A stretch of DNA of 64,000 bases from Haloferula sp. BvORR071 (lineage in GTDB: Bacteria > Verrucomicrobiota > Verrucomicrobiia > Verrucomicrobiales > Akkermansiaceae), in contig NZ_BATP01000004.1 of the NCBI RefSeq assembly GCF_000739615.1, positions 62,001 through 126,000 on the forward strand, written 5' to 3'. This document shows positions 1,471 through 42,784 of the stretch, in pieces; positions within the stretch are counted from its first letter, which is position 1, and each line of letters starts with the position of its first letter. The notes beneath the pieces were generated by a model that was not told where the DNA came from, searched no databases, and worked only from the letters and a program-made list of their open reading frames with translations. The translations under genes and the position numbers were made by a program.

Positions 1471-2610
1471 ATGGCTTCCTATCTGCGCTTCGAGAACGTC
1501 ACCCGGCGCTTCGGCTCCTTTACTGCCGTCAACAATGTCACGCTCGACATCGAGCATGGCGAGACCTTCTCCCTGCTCGGGCCCTCCGGTTGCGGGAAAA
1601 CCACCCTACTGCGGATGGCTGCGGGCTTCGACAAGCCGGACGAGGGCCGGGTGCTTTTGGACGGCAAGGACATCACGCCCCTGCCACCCGAGCAACGGCC
1701 GGTAAACACGGTCTTCCAGAGCTACGCGCTCTTTCCACACCTCTCCATCCGCGACAACATTGCTTTCGGCCCGAAGATCGCCAAGTGGGCGCCGGAAAAG
1801 ATCTCCCGCGGCGTGGACGAGATGTTGGAACTGGTGGACCTCAAGGCCCATGCTGACAAGAAGCCATCGCAGCTCTCCGGCGGCCAGAAACAGCGCGTGG
1901 CTCTTGCCCGTGCCCTGGTCAACAAGCCGAAAGTCCTACTGCTCGACGAACCGCTGGCCGCGCTGGACCTGAAGCTTCGCCAGCGTCTTCTGGTGGAGCT
2001 GGATGCGATCCACGATGAGGTGGGCATCACCTTCATCTACGTGACCCACGATCAGGGCGAGGCGATGTCGATCTCCGACCGGATCGCGGTGATGAACAAG
2101 GGTGTGATCGAGCAAGTCGGCCCGCCGGTGCAGATCTACGAAGCTCCGCGCACCTCTTTCGTCGCGGCCTTCATCGGTGACACGAACTTCCTCGACGGCA
2201 AGATCATCGATTGCATCGACAGCCGCTTCTCGCGCTGCGAGGTGAAGGGCTTCGGCAGCATCGTGATTGATAACGACAAGCCGGTCAGCAAGGGCGATCG
2301 GGTCCATCTATCCCTGAGACCCGAGAAGCTGATCGTTTCGCGAGAACAACCGACGACCAAAGAAACGGACAACGCGATCGCCGGCAAGGTGGAGGATGTG
2401 ATCTACTACGGCTCCCATACGCGCTACTGGGTCCGCTGTGGGGACTGGAAACTGTGCGCGGAAATGCAGCACCGGCAATATCAACTCGATGAGACACCGC
2501 CGAAGTGGGGTGATCAGGTGTGGCTGAAGTGGCACGCGAATGATGGCTTCCTCCTCGAGCAATACCGCGAGGAAGACGAAGGAATGCTCACCTTGCCTGA
2601 CGCCGTCTGA
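1471..2610 (+). CDS. potA: spermidine/putrescine ABC transporter ATP-binding protein
   Basis: ATPase subunit (379 residues) of a polyamine importer, at the cytoplasmic face of the inner membrane. Seen: Walker A GPSGCGKTT at 37-45, Q-loop at 83, signature LSGGQ at 135-139, Walker B VLLLDEP at 155-161, H-loop VTHDQ near 194, and a C-terminal TOBE-like region (PEKLIVSRE near 290-300) that is standard in PotA. First gene of the unit; its TGA overlaps the potB ATG by one base, which implies coupled translation. The family also includes iron and sulfate importers, but the paired PotB/PotC permeases and the downstream potD support polyamines. Confidence 0.93.
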   Translation: MASYLRFENVTRRFGSFTAVNNVTLDIEHGETFSLLGPSGCGKTTLLRMAAGFDKPDEGRVLLDGKDITPLPPEQRPVNTVFQSYALFPHLSIRDNIAFGPKIAKWAPEKISRGVDEMLELVDLKAHADKKPSQLSGGQKQRVALARALVNKPKVLLLDEPLAALDLKLRQRLLVELDAIHDEVGITFIYVTHDQGEAMSISDRIAVMNKGVIEQVGPPVQIYEAPRTSFVAAFIGDTNFLDGKIIDCIDSRFSRCEVKGFGSIVIDNDKPVSKGDRVHLSLRPEKLIVSREQPTTKETDNAIAGKVEDVIYYGSHTRYWVRCGDWKLCAEMQHRQYQLDETPPKWGDQVWLKWHANDGFLLEQYREEDEGMLTLPDAV

Positions 2611-3452
2611 TGAACAAGGAACGCAAAGCAGAGATCCTCTCCACCCTCCCCAGCCTCGGCTGGCTGGTGATGTTCGTGCTGATTCCGGTTATCACCATCT
2701 TCGCCATCGCATTTCGCCCCGCGCTGCCGGCGGGTGGGATTGGTGAAGGCTGGAGCTTGGATGCATTGAAGGCCTTGGGCGATCCGAGCTATCCAGCTTT
2801 GTTCGCACGCACGATCATTATCAGCGGATTGACGACGCTCGCATGTCTCGCCGCAGGATTACCGGCGGCCTATGCGATGGCGCGGCTCACCCCAGCCTGG
2901 CGCTCGCGGATGCTGCTGCTGGTGATTGTCCCGTTTTGGACGAACTTCGTGATCCGCGTCTTCGCCTGGCAGCAGATCCTGCACGCGGAGGGTTACGTGG
3001 CGAAGTTCCTGCGTTCACTGCACATCATCGGGGAAAACGACCGTCTGTTAGGGAATACCTTCGCCGTGGTGCTGGTGAGCTTCTACACCTACCTGCCCTT
3101 CGCGATCCTGCCGCTCTTTGCCGCTGCGGAGAAGTTCGATTTCGGCCTGCTCGACGCGGCCCGTGATTTGGGGGCGAAGGCAGGCAAGGCATTCTTCGCG
3201 GTCTTCGTGCCGGGCATCAAGCAGGGCATCATCACCGCCTTCCTGGTGGTCTTCATCCCCAATCTCGGTTCCTACGTGGTGCCGGACATGGTGGGCGGCA
3301 CTGGCACCCAGATGATCGGCAACAAGATCGCGCAGCGCAACTTTACCGACCGGAACTTGCCTGAAGCCGCAGCGCTCTCCGGGGCTCTCGCCCTGCTGGT
3401 GCTGGCGCCGATGTTCATCCGCCGCCGCGAGAAAACCGCCGCCACCGCCTGA
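2610..3452 (+). CDS. potB: spermidine/putrescine ABC transporter permease PotB
   Basis: Inner-membrane permease of 280 residues with about six hydrophobic segments. The EAA loop that docks to the ATPase is visible near residues 184-204 (DAARDLGAKAGKAFFAVFVP). The 'LGSYVVPDMVGG' stretch soon after is typical of PotB. It starts inside the potA stop codon (TGATG) and is followed 12 nt later by potC. Together the two permeases form the transmembrane channel. Confidence 0.92.
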   Translation: MNKERKAEILSTLPSLGWLVMFVLIPVITIFAIAFRPALPAGGIGEGWSLDALKALGDPSYPALFARTIIISGLTTLACLAAGLPAAYAMARLTPAWRSRMLLLVIVPFWTNFVIRVFAWQQILHAEGYVAKFLRSLHIIGENDRLLGNTFAVVLVSFYTYLPFAILPLFAAAEKFDFGLLDAARDLGAKAGKAFFAVFVPGIKQGIITAFLVVFIPNLGSYVVPDMVGGTGTQMIGNKIAQRNFTDRNLPEAAALSGALALLVLAPMFIRRREKTAATA

Positions 3453-3464
3453 CCACTTCCCGCC

Positions 3465-4247
3465 ATGCGACCGAGCAAAGTTCCTCTCATCACCCTGATC
3501 CTCGTGCTGGTGTTCTTCTACCTGCCGATCGGATTCCTGGTGATGAACTCCTTCAACAAGTCGCGCTATGCGTCGAATTGGGGTGGCTTCAGCACCTATT
3601 GGTATGAGCGCCTCTGGGAGCGCACCGACATTCTGGCCGCGCTTGGCAATTCGGTGAAGATCGCCACCATGGCCAGCCTGCTCTCGATGGTCCTCGGCAC
3701 AGCCGCTGCCTTCGCCTTGGAGCGCTACAAGTCCAAGCTCCAGGATGCGCACCGGCTGCTCGTGACCGTACCGCTGGTGCTACCAGACATCCTGATGGGC
3801 ATGAGCCTGCTGCTGCTCTTCGTCTCCTTCGGCGCGCAACTCAGCCTTTACACAATCACCATCGCTCACGTGACCTTCTGCTTGAGCTACGTCGCGCTGG
3901 TGGTGCAGGCCCGCTTGCAGGACTTCGACTTCAACGTCGTCGAGGCCGCGCGCGACTTGGGAGCGACCAAAACCCAGGCCTTCATCAAAGTCACCTTGCC
4001 CCTGCTGGCCCCGGGCATCTTTGCCGGTGGCTTGCTCGCCTTCACCCTCTCGATCGATGACTACGTCATCACCTATTTCGTCAAGGGCCCGGGCTCGGAT
4101 ACGCTCCCCACGCTGGTGTATTCCATGATCAAGAAGAGCAAGGACCTGCCGGTGATCAACGCGCTCTCCTCCTTGATGCTCTTGGTAACCTTCGCCGTGG
4201 TCGCCGTCTCGCAGCGCCTGACCCGGCCACCTGCGACTCCTTCCTGA
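3465..4247 (+). CDS. potC: spermidine/putrescine ABC transporter permease PotC
   Basis: Second permease subunit (260 residues, usual PotC length), partner of PotB. Seen: N-terminal membrane segment, the characteristic 'MNSFNKSRYASNWGGFS' periplasmic stretch, an EAA loop (EAARDLGATKTQAFIKVTLP) and 'LSIDDYVITYFVKGPG' near the C terminus, typical of PotC. The DUF2164 gene begins 3 nt after its stop. The binding protein that should follow is displaced about 3.5 kb downstream by the AT-rich cassette. Confidence 0.92.
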   Translation: MRPSKVPLITLILVLVFFYLPIGFLVMNSFNKSRYASNWGGFSTYWYERLWERTDILAALGNSVKIATMASLLSMVLGTAAAFALERYKSKLQDAHRLLVTVPLVLPDILMGMSLLLLFVSFGAQLSLYTITIAHVTFCLSYVALVVQARLQDFDFNVVEAARDLGATKTQAFIKVTLPLLAPGIFAGGLLAFTLSIDDYVITYFVKGPGSDTLPTLVYSMIKKSKDLPVINALSSLMLLVTFAVVAVSQRLTRPPATPS

Positions 4248-4250
4248 ACC

Positions 4251-4514
4251 ATGCCCCTGAAACTCTCCAAAGACCAACGCCGCCAAGCAGCCCAATCGCT
4301 CGAGCGCTATCTCAAGGAAGAACTGGACCTCGAGGTCAGCGAACTCCAGGCCGGCTTCCTGCTCGATTTCTTCCAGACCGAGATCGCACCCATCGCCTAC
4401 AATCAGGGGGTGGGCGACGCCCGGCGCTTCCTGGAGGAAAAGATGGAAGACCTGGGCGGGGTCTGCTTCGAGCACGAAATGACCTTCTGGGATAGTGGTA
4501 AAAAGAAACTATAG
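4251..4514 (+). CDS. DUF2164 family protein
   Basis: Small soluble protein of 87 residues. The pattern LKLSKDQRRQAAQSLERYL ... ELSELQ-like ... GFLLDFFQTEIAPIAYNQGV is that of the DUF2164 family, short conserved bacterial proteins of unknown role. It starts 3 nt after potC and is probably the last gene of the potABC transcript on the left of the AT-rich cassette. No catalytic motif is visible. Confidence 0.8.
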   Translation: MPLKLSKDQRRQAAQSLERYLKEELDLEVSELQAGFLLDFFQTEIAPIAYNQGVGDARRFLEEKMEDLGGVCFEHEMTFWDSGKKKL

Positions 4515-4735
4515 CGTGCTCCATAGCCAGCAGACTTACACCGATGCGGACGGCGGACCCGCAGCACTCCCGGGAGCGGCTTGCCGTGCTTTTCGTCACA
4601 CTCCGCGCGATGGGTTCCGCTTATGCTTATGCTTCCAGCTTTGTACCTTCTGGTGCAGCACGACGAAATGCTCTCTCGCGGCAATCCCTACGCAGTGCCT
4701 CCATGATGATACAGCAGCCCGGGCCGCGCGATAAA
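4515..4735. other. gene-free left junction of the AT-rich cassette
   Basis: G+C-rich stretch between DUF2164 and the stop of the first AT-rich gene. Short open frames exist on both strands but have arginine/serine-rich, shadow-like composition. No terminator or mobile-element end was recognised. Confidence 0.4.
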
Positions 4736-5476
4736 CTATTGGGATGGCGGTGAGCTCCCACGTCTGGCCGCATAAAATCGATCGTCAAGAGTCTTCCACC
4801 GGGCTAGATCCTTCATAGCTACTCCTGAATCGCCTTCAATACTGGAATACTCTTCCCCGCGATCATTCACCAGTCTCCACAAAATCGCAGTTTTCCCAGT
4901 TTCCGGAATGGCAACATTTCCTAGCTCTATTGCATCCTTACCTCCATTCCTAAGTTGCTTACTAATTAATACTGTTATCACGGACGCCCGCTCACATCCC
5001 ACAACTGCTTCCAACTCTTTTGATAGACGCAAAAACAAGGATTTCGCAGCCTCCGCGCAGGGATTCACCTTGATATAAAGATCGTCACCATTAGATATCA
5101 ATTGCGAGTGCTCAGCCTCAATTTGAAGAAAATCCCTGATGACACTGGAAACCAGCTCTTCCACCCGCGGCTTTTCCCTGTAATTCAGAGACAACAGGGA
5201 AATTACATCATCACTCAATTGACACGCCTTATCATCAAAGGCTTTAATATTTGACGATTTGATTAAACCTAACGGGATCGCCACGTTATTAATCCCTGTC
5301 TTTTTCGCCTCATCTCCGTTAGCGGCATTAATTTCCGCAGCCCCTAACGAAGAGGAAAAAATCTTCTGATTCCCAGTCGGATCTAGTTGTTTAGGAAACG
5401 AGAATGCAACCCACCCTCCGCCTACAATCAGCACCAAACATACAGCTCTCCAGTATCTTTTTGACATCGCTTTCAT
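4736..5476 (-). CDS. exported protein of unknown function, AT-rich cassette
   Basis: Not recognised as a named family. 246 residues with an N-terminal export or anchor signal (MKAMSKRYWR then a hydrophobic run to about residue 27) and a helical, charged remainder. Its body resembles the neighbouring lipoprotein at low identity: both open with xSKR[FY]W plus a hydrophobic stretch, then an 'I.LP..L..' stretch, an acidic D-C pair and a helix with E-I/V spacing. Third gene of a minus-strand unit, 39 nt after the lipoprotein gene. Codon use is AT-rich, unlike the flanking pot genes, which suggests acquisition. Confidence 0.7.
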   Translation of the reverse strand: MKAMSKRYWRAVCLVLIVGGGWVAFSFPKQLDPTGNQKIFSSSLGAAEINAANGDEAKKTGINNVAIPLGLIKSSNIKAFDDKACQLSDDVISLLSLNYREKPRVEELVSSVIRDFLQIEAEHSQLISNGDDLYIKVNPCAEAAKSLFLRLSKELEAVVGCERASVITVLISKQLRNGGKDAIELGNVAIPETGKTAILWRLVNDRGEEYSSIEGDSGVAMKDLARWKTLDDRFYAARRGSSPPSQ

Positions 5477-5515
5477 TTGGTCGCTCAGCTCTGTGATCCG
5501 CCTTATCCACGGAAT

Positions 5516-6247
5516 TTAGTAGTCTGGAACACCTGGGGCCAAAGTCAAGAAGTTGAATCGCGAATCGCTGTCTTGCTTAAGATTATAAAGAGAACTCTTA
5601 CGTTCACCATTGCTCTCTGTAGACTCAATTAAGAACCGATGCCTTATAGCACCAGGGATGTTTTTTTCTCCAGCGATCTTCATACTACTGGAAACCAGGG
5701 TTACAATAACCGTATCAGAATAGATTCTCTCCAATTGCGATTTCAGCGCAGCATTCACCAATTTTTTTGTATCATCACTCACACTCGGTGAGTATTTTAT
5801 AGAACTCACTGCCGAGGACACTTCAGTTTTTGCTATTGAGGGCAGCATGAAAGGTTTATTCAGCTCAAATTCGTGCTTCGCAACAGAGTCCGCTTGCTTT
5901 TGATGGATTTCATTCTTAACGCGAAGAATTTCCTCAGCCACCCCGCGACGATCCTCACCTTTGATGCCCATTGAGTCTAGGACCGACTCATCGCACCGGC
6001 CACTATCATCTGAAAAAATTGGTGGAATTGTAGCTAGGACGGAGGCTGGGAGCTCAATCCTGTCCGCAAGCTCTTTAGCTTCATCGGTTCGTTCATACTT
6101 TGTGTTAGTCGTCTTTTGAGGCTTTTTTGCTGAAGGCGAATGGCTCGAAGAGCCATTCGCACCCTCTTTTTCCTCGCAAGCCGGAAAGATCGCAATAAAA
6201 GCAATCAGAGCACCTAAACTCCAAAATCTTTTCGAAAGATTCCTCAT
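5516..6247 (-). CDS. predicted lipoprotein of unknown function, AT-rich cassette
   Basis: 243 residues with a lipoprotein signal: MRNLSKRFW, a hydrophobic core, and IFPACEEKEG with the acylatable Cys at about residue 24. A Ser/Lys-rich linker (about 30-55) precedes a mostly helical domain. Its ATG overlaps the stop of the upstream Tat-signal gene by 4 nt (ATGA), so the two are probably translated together. It looks like a diverged paralogue of the next gene (4736-5476). Inferred location is the periplasmic face of a membrane. No enzyme motif is visible. Confidence 0.7.
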   Translation of the reverse strand: MRNLSKRFWSLGALIAFIAIFPACEEKEGANGSSSHSPSAKKPQKTTNTKYERTDEAKELADRIELPASVLATIPPIFSDDSGRCDESVLDSMGIKGEDRRGVAEEILRVKNEIHQKQADSVAKHEFELNKPFMLPSIAKTEVSSAVSSIKYSPSVSDDTKKLVNAALKSQLERIYSDTVIVTLVSSSMKIAGEKNIPGAIRHRFLIESTESNGERKSSLYNLKQDSDSRFNFLTLAPGVPDY

Positions 6248-7362
6248 GGGGTAGGAATAATATATTGCGTAGTATATTTCACTGTCACAGGATCTCCCCC
6301 TCCAATATTTGAGGTTACCACCTCCCTTTTCATTTTATCATCTATTGGCCACCCTGCAATTTTTATGTGGAAATCTTGCGTGAAATTTCCAAATCCATCC
6401 GCTCCAATCGGGTCATCATACCCCCCAGTGCCGATGAAAGCTAGCGAATCAAATGCCCCGTTGATATCCTCCTCTAAAACCGTACCAGCATAAACCCCTG
6501 AAAGGGCCTTTTTATATTGATCCAAGATATTTATTCTAAGCATCGAGAAATTCCAATTGGGGCTACCAGCATCGGAGGTTGCTGGTGGCACAGAACCTTG
6601 AGTTAAAGTTGGATCAACCGGAAGCCCCTCCATTCTAGCGTGGAAGGTATGGGGGACAAATGACACAGTTTCGACCTTGATAACCTTCGGGTCTTTATTG
6701 ATAAATTTCGGCCTTAAAACATAAACATTAGCAGACCCAACCTTTTTCTTGCCTTTCATTGCCACGATTAGGGTACCACCGAGGCGCCTGTCAAATGTCT
6801 TTGGCTTGGGAGTAGACGCATCCAAAGCTCTAATCTGGAGCTCCCATTTCCCTTCTCCTTTATCAGTTGATTTTACGATTTTAATTTTGTCAGGAATATC
6901 ATTTCCTTTTACCAAGAAAGTGATCGCAGGCCAAGGCTCACCTTCCGGTTTCTTAACCGTCGCTGTAATAGTGTAGTGGTTGGGAAATGCTCCACCGCTG
7001 AGGGGATCATGAGGCAATGTTTGGGGCTTTGAGGTTGTAGGCGCACCGTACTTCCAGACCCACCCGGCTTGGGTCGCGGGGGAAGTCACTTCTAAAAAGT
7101 GACATTCTTCCCTATAGCCATTTTTGTCCAAACCGAGTTCCTGTTCAGGGATATCAACAGTTATCTCGCTGGGATTCGGTTCGGCTTCAGCTTTGGAACG
7201 CGCAATAGATGTATTCCAAGCAAGAAAACTTGCTGCCGTCGCCCCACCAGTCCGCTTGAGAAAGCGCCTTCGAGTGATTGACTCTCCTGATGCCTGATGC
7301 TCCCGAGTCTTGGAAGAATCCAAAACTGGCAACGAGAGATCAGAGGAAGGTTTGAGATGCAT
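6244..7362 (-). CDS. Tat-exported protein of unknown function, AT-rich cassette
   Basis: 372 residues from the ATG at 7362. A twin-arginine signal is visible: SITRRRFLKRTGGATAASFL, which matches the S/T-R-R-x-F-L-K consensus, after an unusually long n-region of about 30 residues. The mature part looks rich in beta strands (many T/V/K alternations, 'KWELQIRAL', 'GTLIVAMKG') and resembles an adhesion or surface-layer domain, but no family is recognised. An upstream GTG at 7443 is possible; the ATG at 7362 is preferred because AGAGGA precedes it. First gene of the three-gene cassette. Confidence 0.7.
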   Translation of the reverse strand: MHLKPSSDLSLPVLDSSKTREHQASGESITRRRFLKRTGGATAASFLAWNTSIARSKAEAEPNPSEITVDIPEQELGLDKNGYREECHFLEVTSPATQAGWVWKYGAPTTSKPQTLPHDPLSGGAFPNHYTITATVKKPEGEPWPAITFLVKGNDIPDKIKIVKSTDKGEGKWELQIRALDASTPKPKTFDRRLGGTLIVAMKGKKKVGSANVYVLRPKFINKDPKVIKVETVSFVPHTFHARMEGLPVDPTLTQGSVPPATSDAGSPNWNFSMLRINILDQYKKALSGVYAGTVLEEDINGAFDSLAFIGTGGYDDPIGADGFGNFTQDFHIKIAGWPIDDKMKREVVTSNIGGGDPVTVKYTTQYIIPTP

Positions 7363-7782
7363 CGTCCTCTGATCTCTGTTCAGCGATTCGACGTCAAACA
7401 AAAACACTGGGTAAGTATGTCCATCGCGGACAAATGATCTCACAAACCTTTAATTATTAACGCCTTAGGTCAAATTTAAACCCCTTCTTAATTCCATCTC
7501 GGAAATTTGTCTCCTTCTATTTCAGCTTCTAATTTATTCTTGTTATTGACGTCACGAATCCTACTCGAGCGGTCTTACAAAGTTGTATAATCAAACTAGA
7601 TCAATCCATCGAAGCGGTTCAATCGCTCTGATCTGACATGGCTAAATTCTCTTATCCACAGACCGAAATCCACTAGCCCTCCACTATTATTGATCGAGCT
7701 TAGCCGGCTTAACTGCAATTCCCCGACCAATTTCCTGCTTCCCAGTCCCGAAGGAATCTCCATCGTCTCCAATCTGATCACC
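7363..7782. promoter_or_regulatory. AT-rich divergent intergenic region
   Basis: Gene-free, markedly AT-rich stretch between the divergent Tat-signal gene and potD, so it should hold promoters for both. On the plus strand a perfect -10-like TATAAT lies at 7586-7591 without a convincing -35. No repeats or mobile-element ends were recognised. The return to G+C-rich sequence happens around 7690-7780. Confidence 0.4.
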
Positions 7783-8850
7783 ATGAACCGCCGTCACTTC
7801 ATCACCGCTTCCTCCGCCGCGCTCGCCGCCACTTCCCTGCCCGCCTGCAAGCCCAAGGAATCGGGCGCCGGTGGTAGTGGCGGCAGTGGCAAGACCCTGA
7901 CCGTCTTCACCTGGGCGGACTATCTCAGCAAGGAAGCCAAGGAAGGCTTCGAGAAGGCCCAGGGCTGCAAGGTGGTGATCGATACCTTCGACTCCAACGA
8001 GTCGATGCTCGCCAAGCTCGAATCGGGAGCAAGCGGCTACGACATCCTCGTGCCCTCTTCCTACGCCGTGCAAGCGCTCAAGCGGAAGGGCATGATCCTC
8101 AATCTGGATCACACGAAGATCCCGAATCTCAAGAACATGGACGCGAAGTATCTCGCGATCGCGGCCGACAAAACGATGGAGGTCTCCGTGCCGTATCTGA
8201 TGGCGCCGACCTGCCTATGCTATCTAGCCTCCAAGGTTCCGAATCCCACCGAGTCCTGGGCGATGCTCGATCGCACCGATCTCAAGGGCCGCATCACCCT
8301 GCTAGACGACATGCGCGAAGTGCTGGGCGCCGCGCTCAAGCTGCTCGGCCACTCGCTGAACACCATCGATTCTGCCCAACTCGCAGCAGCCCGTGATGTG
8401 GCGATCCGCTGGAAGAAGAACATCGCGAAGTTCGAGAGCGAGCAGTACAAGAGCGGGATCGCTTCCGGCGAATTCCACCTCGTGCAGGGTTACGCCAGCG
8501 ACCTGATCCAGGCCAGCGCCGAGAACAGCGACATGCACACCTTTGTGCCCAAGGAAGGTGCGGCCTTCTCTTGCGACGACATGTGCATCCCGAAGACCGC
8601 CAAGAACGTCGATCTGGCCCACGCCTTCATCAACCACCTGACCGATCCCGAAGTGGCGGCCAAGAACATGGAGGAGATCGGCTCGCGCTCGCCAAATTCC
8701 GCGGCCTACCCGCACCTCAGCGAGGACTTCCGCGGTAGTCCCCTGCTCTTCCCGCCGGATGAACTCTTCGCCAAGTGCGAACCGATCGGCGACCTCGGCG
8801 ACAAGCTGCCGTTGTGGACCGAGGAGTGGGACAAGGTGAAGACAGCCTAA
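7783..8850 (+). CDS. potD: spermidine/putrescine-binding lipoprotein PotD
   Basis: Extracytoplasmic substrate-binding protein (355 residues) that hands polyamine to PotABC. Start set at the ATG at 7783, which gives an RRHFITASS export signal followed by a lipobox LPAC at about residues 21-24. The mature part begins 'TLTVFTWADYLS' with 'GYDILVPSSYAVQALKRKGM' further on, typical of PotD/PotF. An upstream in-frame ATG at 7690 would bury the signal and is rejected. It is separated from potABC by the AT-rich cassette, so it must now be transcribed from its own promoter. Confidence 0.9.
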   Translation: MNRRHFITASSAALAATSLPACKPKESGAGGSGGSGKTLTVFTWADYLSKEAKEGFEKAQGCKVVIDTFDSNESMLAKLESGASGYDILVPSSYAVQALKRKGMILNLDHTKIPNLKNMDAKYLAIAADKTMEVSVPYLMAPTCLCYLASKVPNPTESWAMLDRTDLKGRITLLDDMREVLGAALKLLGHSLNTIDSAQLAAARDVAIRWKKNIAKFESEQYKSGIASGEFHLVQGYASDLIQASAENSDMHTFVPKEGAAFSCDDMCIPKTAKNVDLAHAFINHLTDPEVAAKNMEEIGSRSPNSAAYPHLSEDFRGSPLLFPPDELFAKCEPIGDLGDKLPLWTEEWDKVKTA

Positions 8851-40146: not shown

Positions 40147-40203
40147 GATTTTGTCACCAGGCTCTGCTTGCTTTGAGGCGCTCCAAGTCGCCCTCAGATC
40201 CAA

Positions 40204-41535
40204 GTGACAAACGATTCACCGCAAGCTCCAGAAAGTCCCTCCAGCCAAGCCCCTTCGTTCTCGGAGGCGCTGCGATTCTGGATCAAGCTCGGCTGGATCA
40301 GCTTCGGCGGTCCGGCCGGGCAGATCGCGATCATGCACAAGGAGATCGTCGAGCGCCGCCGCTGGCTGAGCGAAGACCACTTCCTGCACGCGCTGAATTT
40401 CTGCATGCTCTTGCCCGGCCCGGAGGCCCAGCAGCTCGCCACCTACCTCGGCTGGCGCTTGCACGGGGCACGCGGTGGGATCGCCGCGGGCGCGCTCTTC
40501 GTACTGCCCTCCATCTTCATCCTCTGGTCCCTGAGCTGGCTCTACATGGCGGGTGGCGACGTGAAAGCCATCCAAGGGCTCTTCTATGGACTGATGCCCG
40601 CGGTGATCGCGATCGTCATCTCCGCCGTGAAGCGCATCGGATCGAAGGCCCTGCGGACCCCTGCCCTTTGGGCACTGGCAGTCTGCTCCTTCGTGGCGAT
40701 CTTCCACTTCAAGATCTCCTTCGTCATCATCATCATCAGTGCGGGATTGATCGGCCTGGTCGGCGGCAAGCTCTTCCCCAAACACTTCCCCGCAGCCAAG
40801 GGACATGCAAAAGCCGACAGCGGCGAGGGCCCGGTAATCGAGCTCCCGCCAGCGCACCCGGCCAGCTTCCGGCGCAGCGCCAAGATCCTCGTGCTCTGCC
40901 TGAGCTTGTGGTGGCTGCCGCTACTGCTTTGCGGCTGGCGGCTTGGCTGGCACAGCGTCCATTTCCAGGAGGGCCTCTTCTTCAGCAAGGCCGCACTCGT
41001 CACCGTCGGTGGTGCCTACGCAGTGCTGCCTTACGTTTCCCAGATGGCGGTCGATCACTTCGGCTGGCTGTCGCAGGAGCAAATGATCTCCGGACTCGGC
41101 CTTGCCGAGACCACCCCGGGCCCGCTGATCATGGTCCTGCAATTCGTCGGCTTCGTCGCCGGCTGGCAGCATCCGGGCGGCCTCTCTCCACTGCTATCCG
41201 CCACCCTCGGTGCACTTATCACCACCTGGGTGACCTTCCTGCCCTGCTTCCTTTTCGTCTTCCTCGGCGCGCCCCACGTCGAAGGCCTCCGCGAGCGCCC
41301 CACCATCGCCTCCATTCTAACAGCCATCACCGCCGCCGTGGTAGGCGTCATCCTGAATCTCGCCATCTGGTTCGCCTGGCACGCCCTTCGCCCCACGCCT
41401 CACAGCTTCGATTGGTTCGTCCTAGTCGTCGCCATCGCCGCCCTCATCGCCATGGAGCGCTTCAAGGCCGGCGTCGTCCCCACCCTGACAGCCTGCGCCG
41501 CCCTCGGTATGGTCTGGCACCTCATCGTCCGCTGA
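40204..41535 (+). CDS. chrA: chromate transporter ChrA
   Basis: Inner-membrane protein of 443 residues with two CHR halves. The N half has 'KLGWISFGGPAGQIAIM' and 'FCMLLPGPEAQQLATYLG'; the C half has 'KAALVTVGGAYAVLPYV' and 'AETTPGPLIMVLQFVGFVAG', the duplicated motif of long-chain ChrA. It exports chromate in known members; physiological substrate here is inference. Start is a GTG at 40204. The stop is one base from the stop of the convergent cytochrome-like gene. Confidence 0.92.
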   Translation: MTNDSPQAPESPSSQAPSFSEALRFWIKLGWISFGGPAGQIAIMHKEIVERRRWLSEDHFLHALNFCMLLPGPEAQQLATYLGWRLHGARGGIAAGALFVLPSIFILWSLSWLYMAGGDVKAIQGLFYGLMPAVIAIVISAVKRIGSKALRTPALWALAVCSFVAIFHFKISFVIIIISAGLIGLVGGKLFPKHFPAAKGHAKADSGEGPVIELPPAHPASFRRSAKILVLCLSLWWLPLLLCGWRLGWHSVHFQEGLFFSKAALVTVGGAYAVLPYVSQMAVDHFGWLSQEQMISGLGLAETTPGPLIMVLQFVGFVAGWQHPGGLSPLLSATLGALITTWVTFLPCFLFVFLGAPHVEGLRERPTIASILTAITAAVVGVILNLAIWFAWHALRPTPHSFDWFVLVVAIAALIAMERFKAGVVPTLTACAALGMVWHLIVR

Positions 41536-41536
41536 C

Positions 41537-42784
41537 CTACCACCCATCAAGCGTTTCCTTCAAAATCGCATCCACCCTCTTCCGCTCCGACTCCTTCAAA
41601 TAACTGAAGCTCGAGTCCTCCCCCGAGATCACCGCCTTCATCCCTGCAAATACCGCCTGCTTCACCCGCGGCGGCAGATCGCGGAAGGCCTGCGAGTAGA
41701 CCATGTAGGAGCACCGGTTCTTGAAGATCCGATCGTAGAGATGGAACTCCACCAGCGAATCACCCGCCTTCGTCTTCGGGTAGCGCGCGGTGAATGCTTT
41801 CTGGAACTCCTCGCCGCCCACCAAGTCATCGCCGGGCTTCGCCTCGTCCTTGTAGAAGAGGCACTCCACGATCTTCGCGGCCATCCCATCCGCCACCCGA
41901 CCCGCCGAACCTTGATCAGGATCAGCCTCGGGATCGATCGTCTTGCCGATGAAGCAGGCCCGCCGGTACTGCAGCGTCGCGGCATTCAGCAGGTTGTGCA
42001 TCCGGCATTGGTGCTCCAGCACCATCAGCGCCACGATGTCGCTCGTCGGCCGCGGATACTTGCTCACATCGATGACCCCGCGCAGGTCGAGCAGGTCGCT
42101 CGGCTTAGGCTGGGCGTCGGCCCCTTCGGTGAAAGTACGGTTGCCTAGATGCCCCTGCGAACTCCGGCCGGTCACATAGTAGCCGCCCCAGCGCTCGGCC
42201 AGCGGCGTGTCGTGATTCACGTGCGAAGTCCCCATCGCGAGCAGCGGATGCCCCTCGGAATTCGGAAAGACAGAGCGCACCTGCACGCCCGGGATCCCCT
42301 CCGTCCGCGCGGTCCCGTGGCAGGACATGCACAGCGAGGTATCGCGCTCGACCTTCAGCTTCCCGTTCTCCTCGGTCTCAATGACGTAGAAGATGTCACC
42401 CAGCACCGGATCCTGCACGATCACCTCGATCGAGCCGCCCGGCACGTAGCCAACATAGGCATCATTCGAGAAAAACAGCGCCCGTGGGTTCTTCGGCTGG
42501 ATCAGCGCGACCTGCAGGCTGGTCTTGGAGAATACCAGAATTTGGGATTCCTCAGGCACATCCAGCTCCTTGAGCACGAAGCGCAAACGCTCCAAGCCGG
42601 TCTTCCCCTCCACCTTCTTCTCCCCGGAGGCCAGCGCCGCCGCCAGCTTGGTCACGGAGTCGTTCGGCTTGGTGTCGGAGTAGCGGATCGGCGGCAAATC
42701 CCAGAAATCCGCGTCCCCTGACGCCACTTGCGCCAGCAGCACGGGAACCAAAAGCAGCCACTTCACGGAGAAATCAAACGGCAT
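41537..42784 (-). CDS. exported mono-heme cytochrome-c-like protein
   Basis: 415 residues with a signal peptide (cut near ASGDAD, residue 22). One heme-c motif CMSCH at 152-156, preceded by 'LGDIFYVIETE'. Otherwise the sequence ('YPRPTSDIVALMVLEHQCRMHNLLNAAT') is of an unassigned family often found in Planctomycetes and Verrucomicrobia. Probably a periplasmic redox protein. A TTGAC-CTAA-GTCAA palindrome lies upstream at 42820-42833, near the expected promoter. Confidence 0.7.
   Translation of the reverse strand: MPFDFSVKWLLLVPVLLAQVASGDADFWDLPPIRYSDTKPNDSVTKLAAALASGEKKVEGKTGLERLRFVLKELDVPEESQILVFSKTSLQVALIQPKNPRALFFSNDAYVGYVPGGSIEVIVQDPVLGDIFYVIETEENGKLKVERDTSLCMSCHGTARTEGIPGVQVRSVFPNSEGHPLLAMGTSHVNHDTPLAERWGGYYVTGRSSQGHLGNRTFTEGADAQPKPSDLLDLRGVIDVSKYPRPTSDIVALMVLEHQCRMHNLLNAATLQYRRACFIGKTIDPEADPDQGSAGRVADGMAAKIVECLFYKDEAKPGDDLVGGEEFQKAFTARYPKTKAGDSLVEFHLYDRIFKNRCSYMVYSQAFRDLPPRVKQAVFAGMKAVISGEDSSFSYLKESERKRVDAILKETLDGW

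What the first reader, a model, noticed from the sequence alone, without database searches (positions are those of the whole stretch)
4736..7782. AT-rich exported-protein cassette splits the polyamine transporter locus
potA-potB-potC-DUF2164 and potD normally sit together, but here a three-gene minus-strand block about 2.7 kb long lies between them. Its G+C content is visibly lower than the flanks (by eye roughly 40-45 versus over 60 percent). All three proteins carry export signals (Tat, lipoprotein, hydrophobic), the first two genes overlap by 4 nt, and none belongs to a family I recognise. No integrase or IS end is visible. This suggests a horizontally acquired, self-contained periplasmic or surface system that has left potABC and potD on separate transcripts.
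Basis: partly seen in the sequence, partly recalled or inferred. Interest (0 to 1): 0.65.

Follow-up and report, generated by a model that had tools for sequence, protein, structure and literature searches.

The report
Imported Tat-exported protein gene trio
A foreign-looking three-gene block sits between two parts of a transporter operon; it belongs to a scattered family of exported proteins that share one export tag and a membrane-tethered partner, and that in related bacteria often lie beside sugar-adding enzymes, which hints at a way of making variable surface glycoproteins.

Summary
Window 4736-7443 (-) is a three-gene block of GC 0.45 against 0.627 +/- 0.017 elsewhere; GC3 is 0.43-0.45 against 0.75-0.85 in the pot genes. 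Of 10 genus relatives with potD, 6 have no insert between potC(-DUF2164) and potD, 2 carry other inserts, 2 have potD away from potABC. The genome holds a paralogous trio in the same order on contig C32. Both belong to a larger set: a conserved Tat leader, a passenger otherwise unrelated, and a protein with one N-terminal anchor (next gene anchored in 16 of 20 cases, control 9 of 88). In relatives the set often lies beside soluble glycosyltransferases: 11 of 15 places of the marker enzyme GTa have a Tat gene and an anchored gene within 3 kb, one more has a leader remnant. The window cassette has none; the only GTa place found in this genome is on C45. Best reading: an imported cassette for a Tat-exported, membrane-held protein, probably glycosylated in the cytoplasm. 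The glycosylation is inferred; shared islands explain the linkage almost as well.

The parts
6244..7443 (-). Tat-leader gene: conserved twin-arginine leader and a passenger of about 310 aa; probable start ATG at 7362
   Evidence: ORF; Tat model; leader alignments; paralogue on C32, 38%; AF2 model of the passenger (all strands) too weak to use, pLDDT 37.7
5516..6247 (-). first partner: one hydrophobic N-terminus ending in a cysteine (possible lipoprotein), 243 aa
   Evidence: 20% to the C32 homologue, E 1e-5 in a two-sequence run, 4e-4 in the all-against-all run; relative in G012
4736..5476 (-). second partner: N-terminal helix (residues 6-25), low-confidence linker, alpha/beta domain at about 81-210; 246 aa
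   Evidence: 28% to the C32 homologue, E 3e-22; AF2 ten-residue blocks from 81 to 210 at pLDDT 75-95; no confident fold match
7335..7377 (-). perfect 13-nt inverted repeat; in the mRNA its stem holds the purine-rich ribosome site and its loop the ATG of the Tat gene
   Evidence: z -3.1; 0 of 200 shuffles as stable
7444..7782 (.). AT-rich gap between the cassette and potD, right edge of the insert
   Evidence: GC 0.35-0.53 in 100-base steps
4515..4735 (.). about 220 bases of near-host GC between DUF2164 and the cassette, left edge
   Evidence: GC 0.57-0.59 in 100-base steps
1471..4514 (+). flank: potA, potB, potC, DUF2164
7783..8850 (+). flank: potD

Best explanation
The block is an imported cassette of a dispersed family in this bacterial family: a shared Tat leader carries a fast-changing passenger, followed by one or two partners tethered to the envelope by their N-terminus. 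Shown: gene order, leader, predicted anchors, composition break, paralogous trio, uninterrupted site in relatives, and physical linkage of many relatives to soluble glycosyltransferases. Inferred: the passenger folds in the cytoplasm, is glycosylated there by such enzymes (in this genome perhaps by the unlinked cluster on C45), leaves by Tat, and is held or handled outside by the tethered partners, giving a variable surface or periplasmic glycoprotein.
For: Composition and uninterrupted site. Paralogous trio in the same order. Leader shared by passengers that are otherwise unrelated: among 17 mature sequences only window and C32 match well (E 3e-33), besides one 35-residue match at E 0.04. First downstream gene anchored in 16 of 20 by a strict rule, two more with a lipobox, against 9 of 88 control ORFs. 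Of 15 GTa places, 11 have a Tat-type gene and an anchored gene within 3 kb and one (G007) a leader in a 58-aa frame with no anchored gene seen. Leader places with these enzymes nearby: 10 of the 19 whose surroundings I fetched. Co-occurrence in 195 genomes: 8 genomes have both GTa and leader; Fisher 1e-7 on all 16 leader genomes, 5e-9 on 12 stricter ones, not corrected for kinship; within the genus alone 5 of 6, p 0.004. The enzymes recall protein glycosylation: GT90 to protein O-glucosyltransferase 1, E 2.5e-16; GTa profile to the Skp1 galactosyltransferase, E 7e-4, and glycogenin, 0.0065. None of 20 cluster proteins scanned passes a membrane-segment threshold. One G010 cluster has a radical SAM/SPASM enzyme 20 bases from a Cys-rich Tat protein, again a cytoplasmic modifier. 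TatC is present.
Against: No homologue of these glycosyltransferases was found in the 64-kb window or near the other three leader genes of this genome (E 1e-5; C32 and part of C53 also at 1e-2). Ser+Thr of the window passenger is 13.5%, within one sd of the window ORFs (11.1%, sd 4.9); the 17 passengers average 17.9%. The C45 cluster has no Tat-type gene beside it, nor has G152 or G024. GTb gave no match to solved structures and the GTa match is weak. Clusters may hold surface-polysaccharide genes that merely share islands with the cassettes. No fold was obtained for the passenger.
Confidence: 0.4

Rival explanations
1. Hitchhiking: the cassettes make exported proteins that are not glycosylated; they sit near glycosyltransferases only because both are exchanged at surface-polysaccharide islands.
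For: The own-genome C32 trio lies between two copies of a gene that reads like an exopolysaccharide sugar transferase, one cut short; none of the four leader genes of this genome has GTa nearby; neighbouring enzymes elsewhere include UDP-galactopyranose mutase, a pyruvyl transferase and a GT11 domain, as in surface glycans.
Against: The same GTa, often with GTb, recurs within 3 kb of a Tat-type gene in several genera, 11 of 15 GTa places plus one remnant (with 38, 43, 50); none of the 20 cluster proteins scanned looks membrane-bound.
Confidence: 0.33
2. A secreted antagonist with its immunity protein: the hypervariable passenger is bacteriocin-like or toxin-like and the tethered partner protects the producer.
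For: Fast-changing secreted protein with an adjacent, often overlapping, anchored partner; tandem copies; one G129 relative of the second partner follows an RHS-repeat ORF.
Against: No toxin or defence family matched the window proteins. Whether passengers and partners change together was not tested; 20 of 33 partners match another partner at E 0.01, some only at the N-terminus.
Confidence: 0.15
3. Old native genes with odd composition that relatives have lost.
For: A paralogous trio exists in the same genome, with GC nearer to the host (0.56-0.57 for two of its genes; 0.61 for the third).
Against: GC3 0.43-0.45, the lowest in the window; site uninterrupted in 6 of 10 relatives; no match beyond the leader region in 96 other genomes.
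Confidence: 0.05

Closest known systems
Serine-rich repeat glycoproteins with accessory Sec and dedicated glycosyltransferases (recalled)
   Same: a surface protein glycosylated in the cytoplasm by enzymes encoded beside it, then exported by a special route
   Different: export here would be by Tat, passengers are short and unrelated to each other, and tethered partners accompany them; the window copy has no enzyme beside it
Protein O-glucosyltransferase 1 (GT90) and Skp1 galactosyltransferase / glycogenin
   Same: sequence relation of the cluster's GT90 (E 2.5e-16) and, weakly, GTa (E 7e-4)
   Different: those are single eukaryotic enzymes (recalled); here they lie in bacterial clusters with a Tat protein
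Radical SAM/SPASM RiPP maturases of the PapB ranthipeptide type
   Same: one G010 cluster has such an enzyme beside a Cys-rich Tat protein
   Different: 243.8 bits, under the PapB cut-off of 340; none was sought beside the window cassette
PEP-CTERM/exosortase and similar sorting-tag families (recalled)
   Same: one short shared tag on unrelated passengers at dispersed places
   Different: the tag is N-terminal and a Tat leader; no sorting enzyme identified

Membership tests
Tat pathway substrate | twin-arginine leader | tested here: met
   TIGR01409 17.3 bits, cut-off 16.7; Pfam PF10518 under its cut-off
Tat pathway substrate | TatC in the genome | tested here: met
   C59:733-1689, E 2e-62
Tat pathway substrate | Tat-dependent export | not testable with these tools
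   needs an experiment
Horizontally acquired cassette | composition break at both ends | tested here: met
Horizontally acquired cassette | uninterrupted site in relatives | tested here: met
   6 of 10 relatives; 2 other inserts, 2 unlinked
Horizontally acquired cassette | bracketing direct repeats | tested here: not met
   none found in 4300-7900 brackets the block
Horizontally acquired cassette | integrase or transposase beside it | not tested
   only the ORF list up to 12 kb was read by eye
Dedicated protein-glycosylation and export locus | glycosyltransferase of the recurring group beside the window cassette | tested here: not met
   no hit in the window at E 1e-5
Dedicated protein-glycosylation and export locus | such enzymes beside related cassettes | tested here: met
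   11 of 15 GTa places, plus one leader remnant; 10 of 19 leader places
Dedicated protein-glycosylation and export locus | such enzymes somewhere in this genome | tested here: met
   C45:212980-215175
Dedicated protein-glycosylation and export locus | glycan on the passenger | not testable with these tools
   needs mass spectrometry
Polymorphic toxin with immunity protein | toxin domain in the secreted protein | tested here: inconclusive
   no family match; absence of a match excludes nothing
Formate dehydrogenase region TAT target (TIGR02811) | score over the curated cut-off | tested here: not met
   16.1 against 48.45 bits

The most novel reading that the evidence does not exclude
A Tat-coupled cytoplasmic protein-modification system of Verrucomicrobiota: one shared leader both marks unrelated passengers for modification by soluble glycosyltransferases (in one case a radical SAM enzyme) and sends them folded through Tat, with tethered partners receiving them; in this genome one enzyme cluster would serve four dispersed passengers in trans.
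Probability: 0.27. Interest if true: 0.82.

Novelty: new variant of a known kind. Interest (0 to 1): 0.56.

Why it matters
If the reading holds, Tat would serve a dedicated route for proteins that are folded and glycosylated in the cytoplasm, with a leader that stays constant while passengers change. That would explain why a Tat leader is used at all, and it would give a bacterial model for GT90-like and GT8-like protein glycosylation. For the window itself it turns an unexplained insertion into a member of a recognisable, testable family.

Tried and rejected
Structure of the passenger: AF2 on two sequences gave pLDDT 37.7 and was not searched further. Second partner: Foldseek best E 0.15 and VIA-align best Z 3.9, no usable match; that is no proof of a new fold. 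That the two partners are one family: profile comparison gave probability 0.8%, not supported. Other copies of the cassette DNA in the genome: none besides itself. Viral contigs: 10 stretches matched a pattern, none a relative. Leader outside the family: in 387 genomes of the phylum, at E 1e-6, matches in G000, G010, G029 and two class members of another family (G494, G549), whose open frames of 442 and 485 aa I took for generic Tat proteins without reading them (at most 19 candidates were scored per genome). One archaeal contig (L068) matches 14 residues only and was set aside.

Rows dropped before counts. Leader places: one search lists 24; five (G011:C152, G173, G189, G225, G029:C44) were weak and their wider surroundings were not fetched, leaving 19. 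Next-gene count: the 20 are 16 of those 19 leader genes and 4 genes with divergent leaders beside GTa; the second copies in G209 and G010 and the broken one in G007 were not scored. By the strict rule the 16 gave 15, the 4 gave 1. The 33 partners were picked by me from the listings. The control ORFs come from a greedy caller and may include false ones.

Hairpin at the start of the Tat gene: of 15 other Tat genes 14 show no perfect arms of 9 nt or more and one has 9-nt arms, so it is not part of the family design. Papers: searches (listings only) showed no description of such a system; most subscription journals are not held. My potD query was out of frame; it still placed potD because the DNA is similar, in the right frame, gives the identities (67-83%).

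Full report
WHAT IS THERE. The window is G000:C63:62001-126000 of a 7.8-Mb genome. Between DUF2164 (ends 4514) and potD (ATG at 7783) lie three minus-strand genes, 4736-5476, 5516-6247 and 6244-7443. The first-transcribed gene has an upstream GTG and an ATG at 7362 with a better ribosome site, so the protein is probably 372 aa. GC falls to 0.449 in 2.7-kb windows; clear of the block the mean is 0.627 (sd 0.017) and the minimum 0.595. GC3 is 0.43-0.45 against 0.75-0.85 for potA, potB, potC, DUF2164 and potD.

THE SITE IN RELATIVES. Of 17 other genus genomes searched, ten have potD at E 1e-60. In six (G003, G007, G009, G012, G013, G016) potC or DUF2164 is followed by potD within about 100 bases. 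G010 has a 225-aa ORF there and G011 a 607-aa minus-strand ORF with Ig-like and cadherin-like matches. In G006 and G008 no potABC was found within about 7 kb of potD. DUF2164 itself was found in G003 and G010 only. So the insertion is real, and this junction has been opened more than once.

THE TRIO HAS A PARALOGUE. On contig C32 of the same genome the same three genes occur in the same order: Tat protein 38% (E 1.8e-40), first partner 20% (E 1e-5; 4e-4), second partner 28% (E 3e-22). Their GC is nearer to the host. The second-partner family occurs in 3 of 260 family genomes: G000, G012 (two anchored genes, no Tat gene seen) and G129 (after an RHS-repeat ORF). The first-partner family occurs in 2 of 254: G000 and G012.

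A WIDER SET. Beyond the trio, the leader is shared: T-R-R-x-F-[LI]-K-R-[TS]-G-G-A-T followed by a hydrophobic run. A profile finds it in 16 of 195 family genomes at E 1e-3, 24 places, four of them in this genome (at most 37 candidates scored per genome); the weakest rows are probably ordinary Tat proteins. In the named genome collection, 8 loci were returned: seven from records titled as Verrucomicrobiota (among them Haloferula luteola and Roseibacillus ishigakijimensis; one is titled Akkermansia muciniphila) and one archaeal, a 14-residue match. I take G016 and G048 to be the two named species from equal contig lengths. The passengers behind the leader are unrelated to each other except window and C32 (17 compared). 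The first downstream gene is anchored by one N-terminal hydrophobic stretch in 16 of 20 cases by a strict rule; two more (G014, G003b) have a lipobox; in the last two (G010c, G003a) the next gene is an enzyme and anchored genes lie on the other side. The control is 9 of 88 ORFs of 200-450 aa.

GLYCOSYLTRANSFERASES. In relatives the set lies beside a recurring group: GTa (no full Pfam match; four of ten members match Nucleotid_trans and three Glyco_transf_8, best E 3e-4 and 6e-4), GTb (Branch domain, with a weak GT25 match), GT90 and DUF707. A GTa profile finds 15 places in 13 of 254 genomes. Eleven have a Tat-type gene and an anchored gene within 3 kb (G029, G014, G048, G016, G003 twice, G010 twice, G170, G115, G108). 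In both G003 places, the G010 place at 3.49 Mb and G170 the leader is divergent and was recognised by reading the ORFs; a motif script flagged all of these but G170. G007 has the leader in a 58-aa frame and no anchored gene that I saw. Three have none: G152, G000:C45 and G024, where the contig starts beside the enzyme. Seen from the other side, 10 of 19 leader places had enzymes of the group nearby; G006 has GTb fragments only. None of the 20 cluster proteins scanned, one of them the radical SAM enzyme, passes a membrane-segment threshold. GT90 matches protein O-glucosyltransferase 1, the GTa profile weakly Skp1 galactosyltransferase and glycogenin, GTb nothing solved. In one G010 cluster a radical SAM/SPASM enzyme, PapB-like but under the cut-off, lies directly beside a passenger with 10 cysteines in 164 residues.

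READING. The simplest account of a Tat leader, soluble modifying enzymes and tethered partners is a protein that is finished in the cytoplasm, exported folded, and received at the envelope. For the window copy the enzyme part is missing. The only GTa place found in this genome is on C45, with no Tat-type gene near it, and its four leader genes have no such enzymes near them, which would fit service in trans. That is inference. The alternative that both simply travel in surface-polysaccharide islands is nearly as likely, and the C32 trio, sitting between two copies (72% over 372 bases) of a gene that reads like a sugar transferase, fits it.

LIMITS. No fold for the passenger; no confident fold match for the second partner, although its core is well predicted. 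Fisher values ignore kinship, though the excess also shows within the genus (5 of 6, p 0.004). GTa was defined from linked examples (8 of 10 rows of its alignment), which may favour linked relatives. The label of the C32 neighbours as exopolysaccharide genes is from reading the sequence, not from a family search.

Noticed in passing
window 7335-7377: A perfect 13-nt inverted repeat places the ribosome site of the Tat gene in a stem and its ATG in the loop; it could control translation.
   Followed up: partly
L122 10276-15393 (G010:C1, about 3.494-3.499 Mb): A radical SAM/SPASM enzyme beside a Cys-rich Tat-leader protein with two anchored proteins and GTa/GTb: a possible Tat-exported crosslinked protein.
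   Followed up: partly
L030 6148-10968 (G000:C32): The paralogous trio lies between a short 5' copy and a full copy of a gene that reads like an exopolysaccharide sugar transferase, 72% identical over 372 bases.
   Followed up: partly
L137 7300-10063 (G129): An RHS-repeat ORF is followed by two anchored proteins, the second related to the window's 4736-5476 protein.
   Followed up: partly
L071 102-958 (G140) and L069 12939-14243 (G108): ORFs that read like insertion-sequence transposases lie by Tat cassettes; recognised from memory, not tested.
   Followed up: no
L070 7226-7639 (G209): A leader of this family has R-W where the twin arginine should be, so it may no longer be a Tat signal.
   Followed up: no
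window 40173-41603: The ORF with the next lowest GC3 in the window (0.488) after the trio.
   Followed up: no
L035 4187-7900 (G029): A 1237-aa ORF combines GT11, galactosyltransferase and other glycosyltransferase matches beside a Tat cassette.
   Followed up: no
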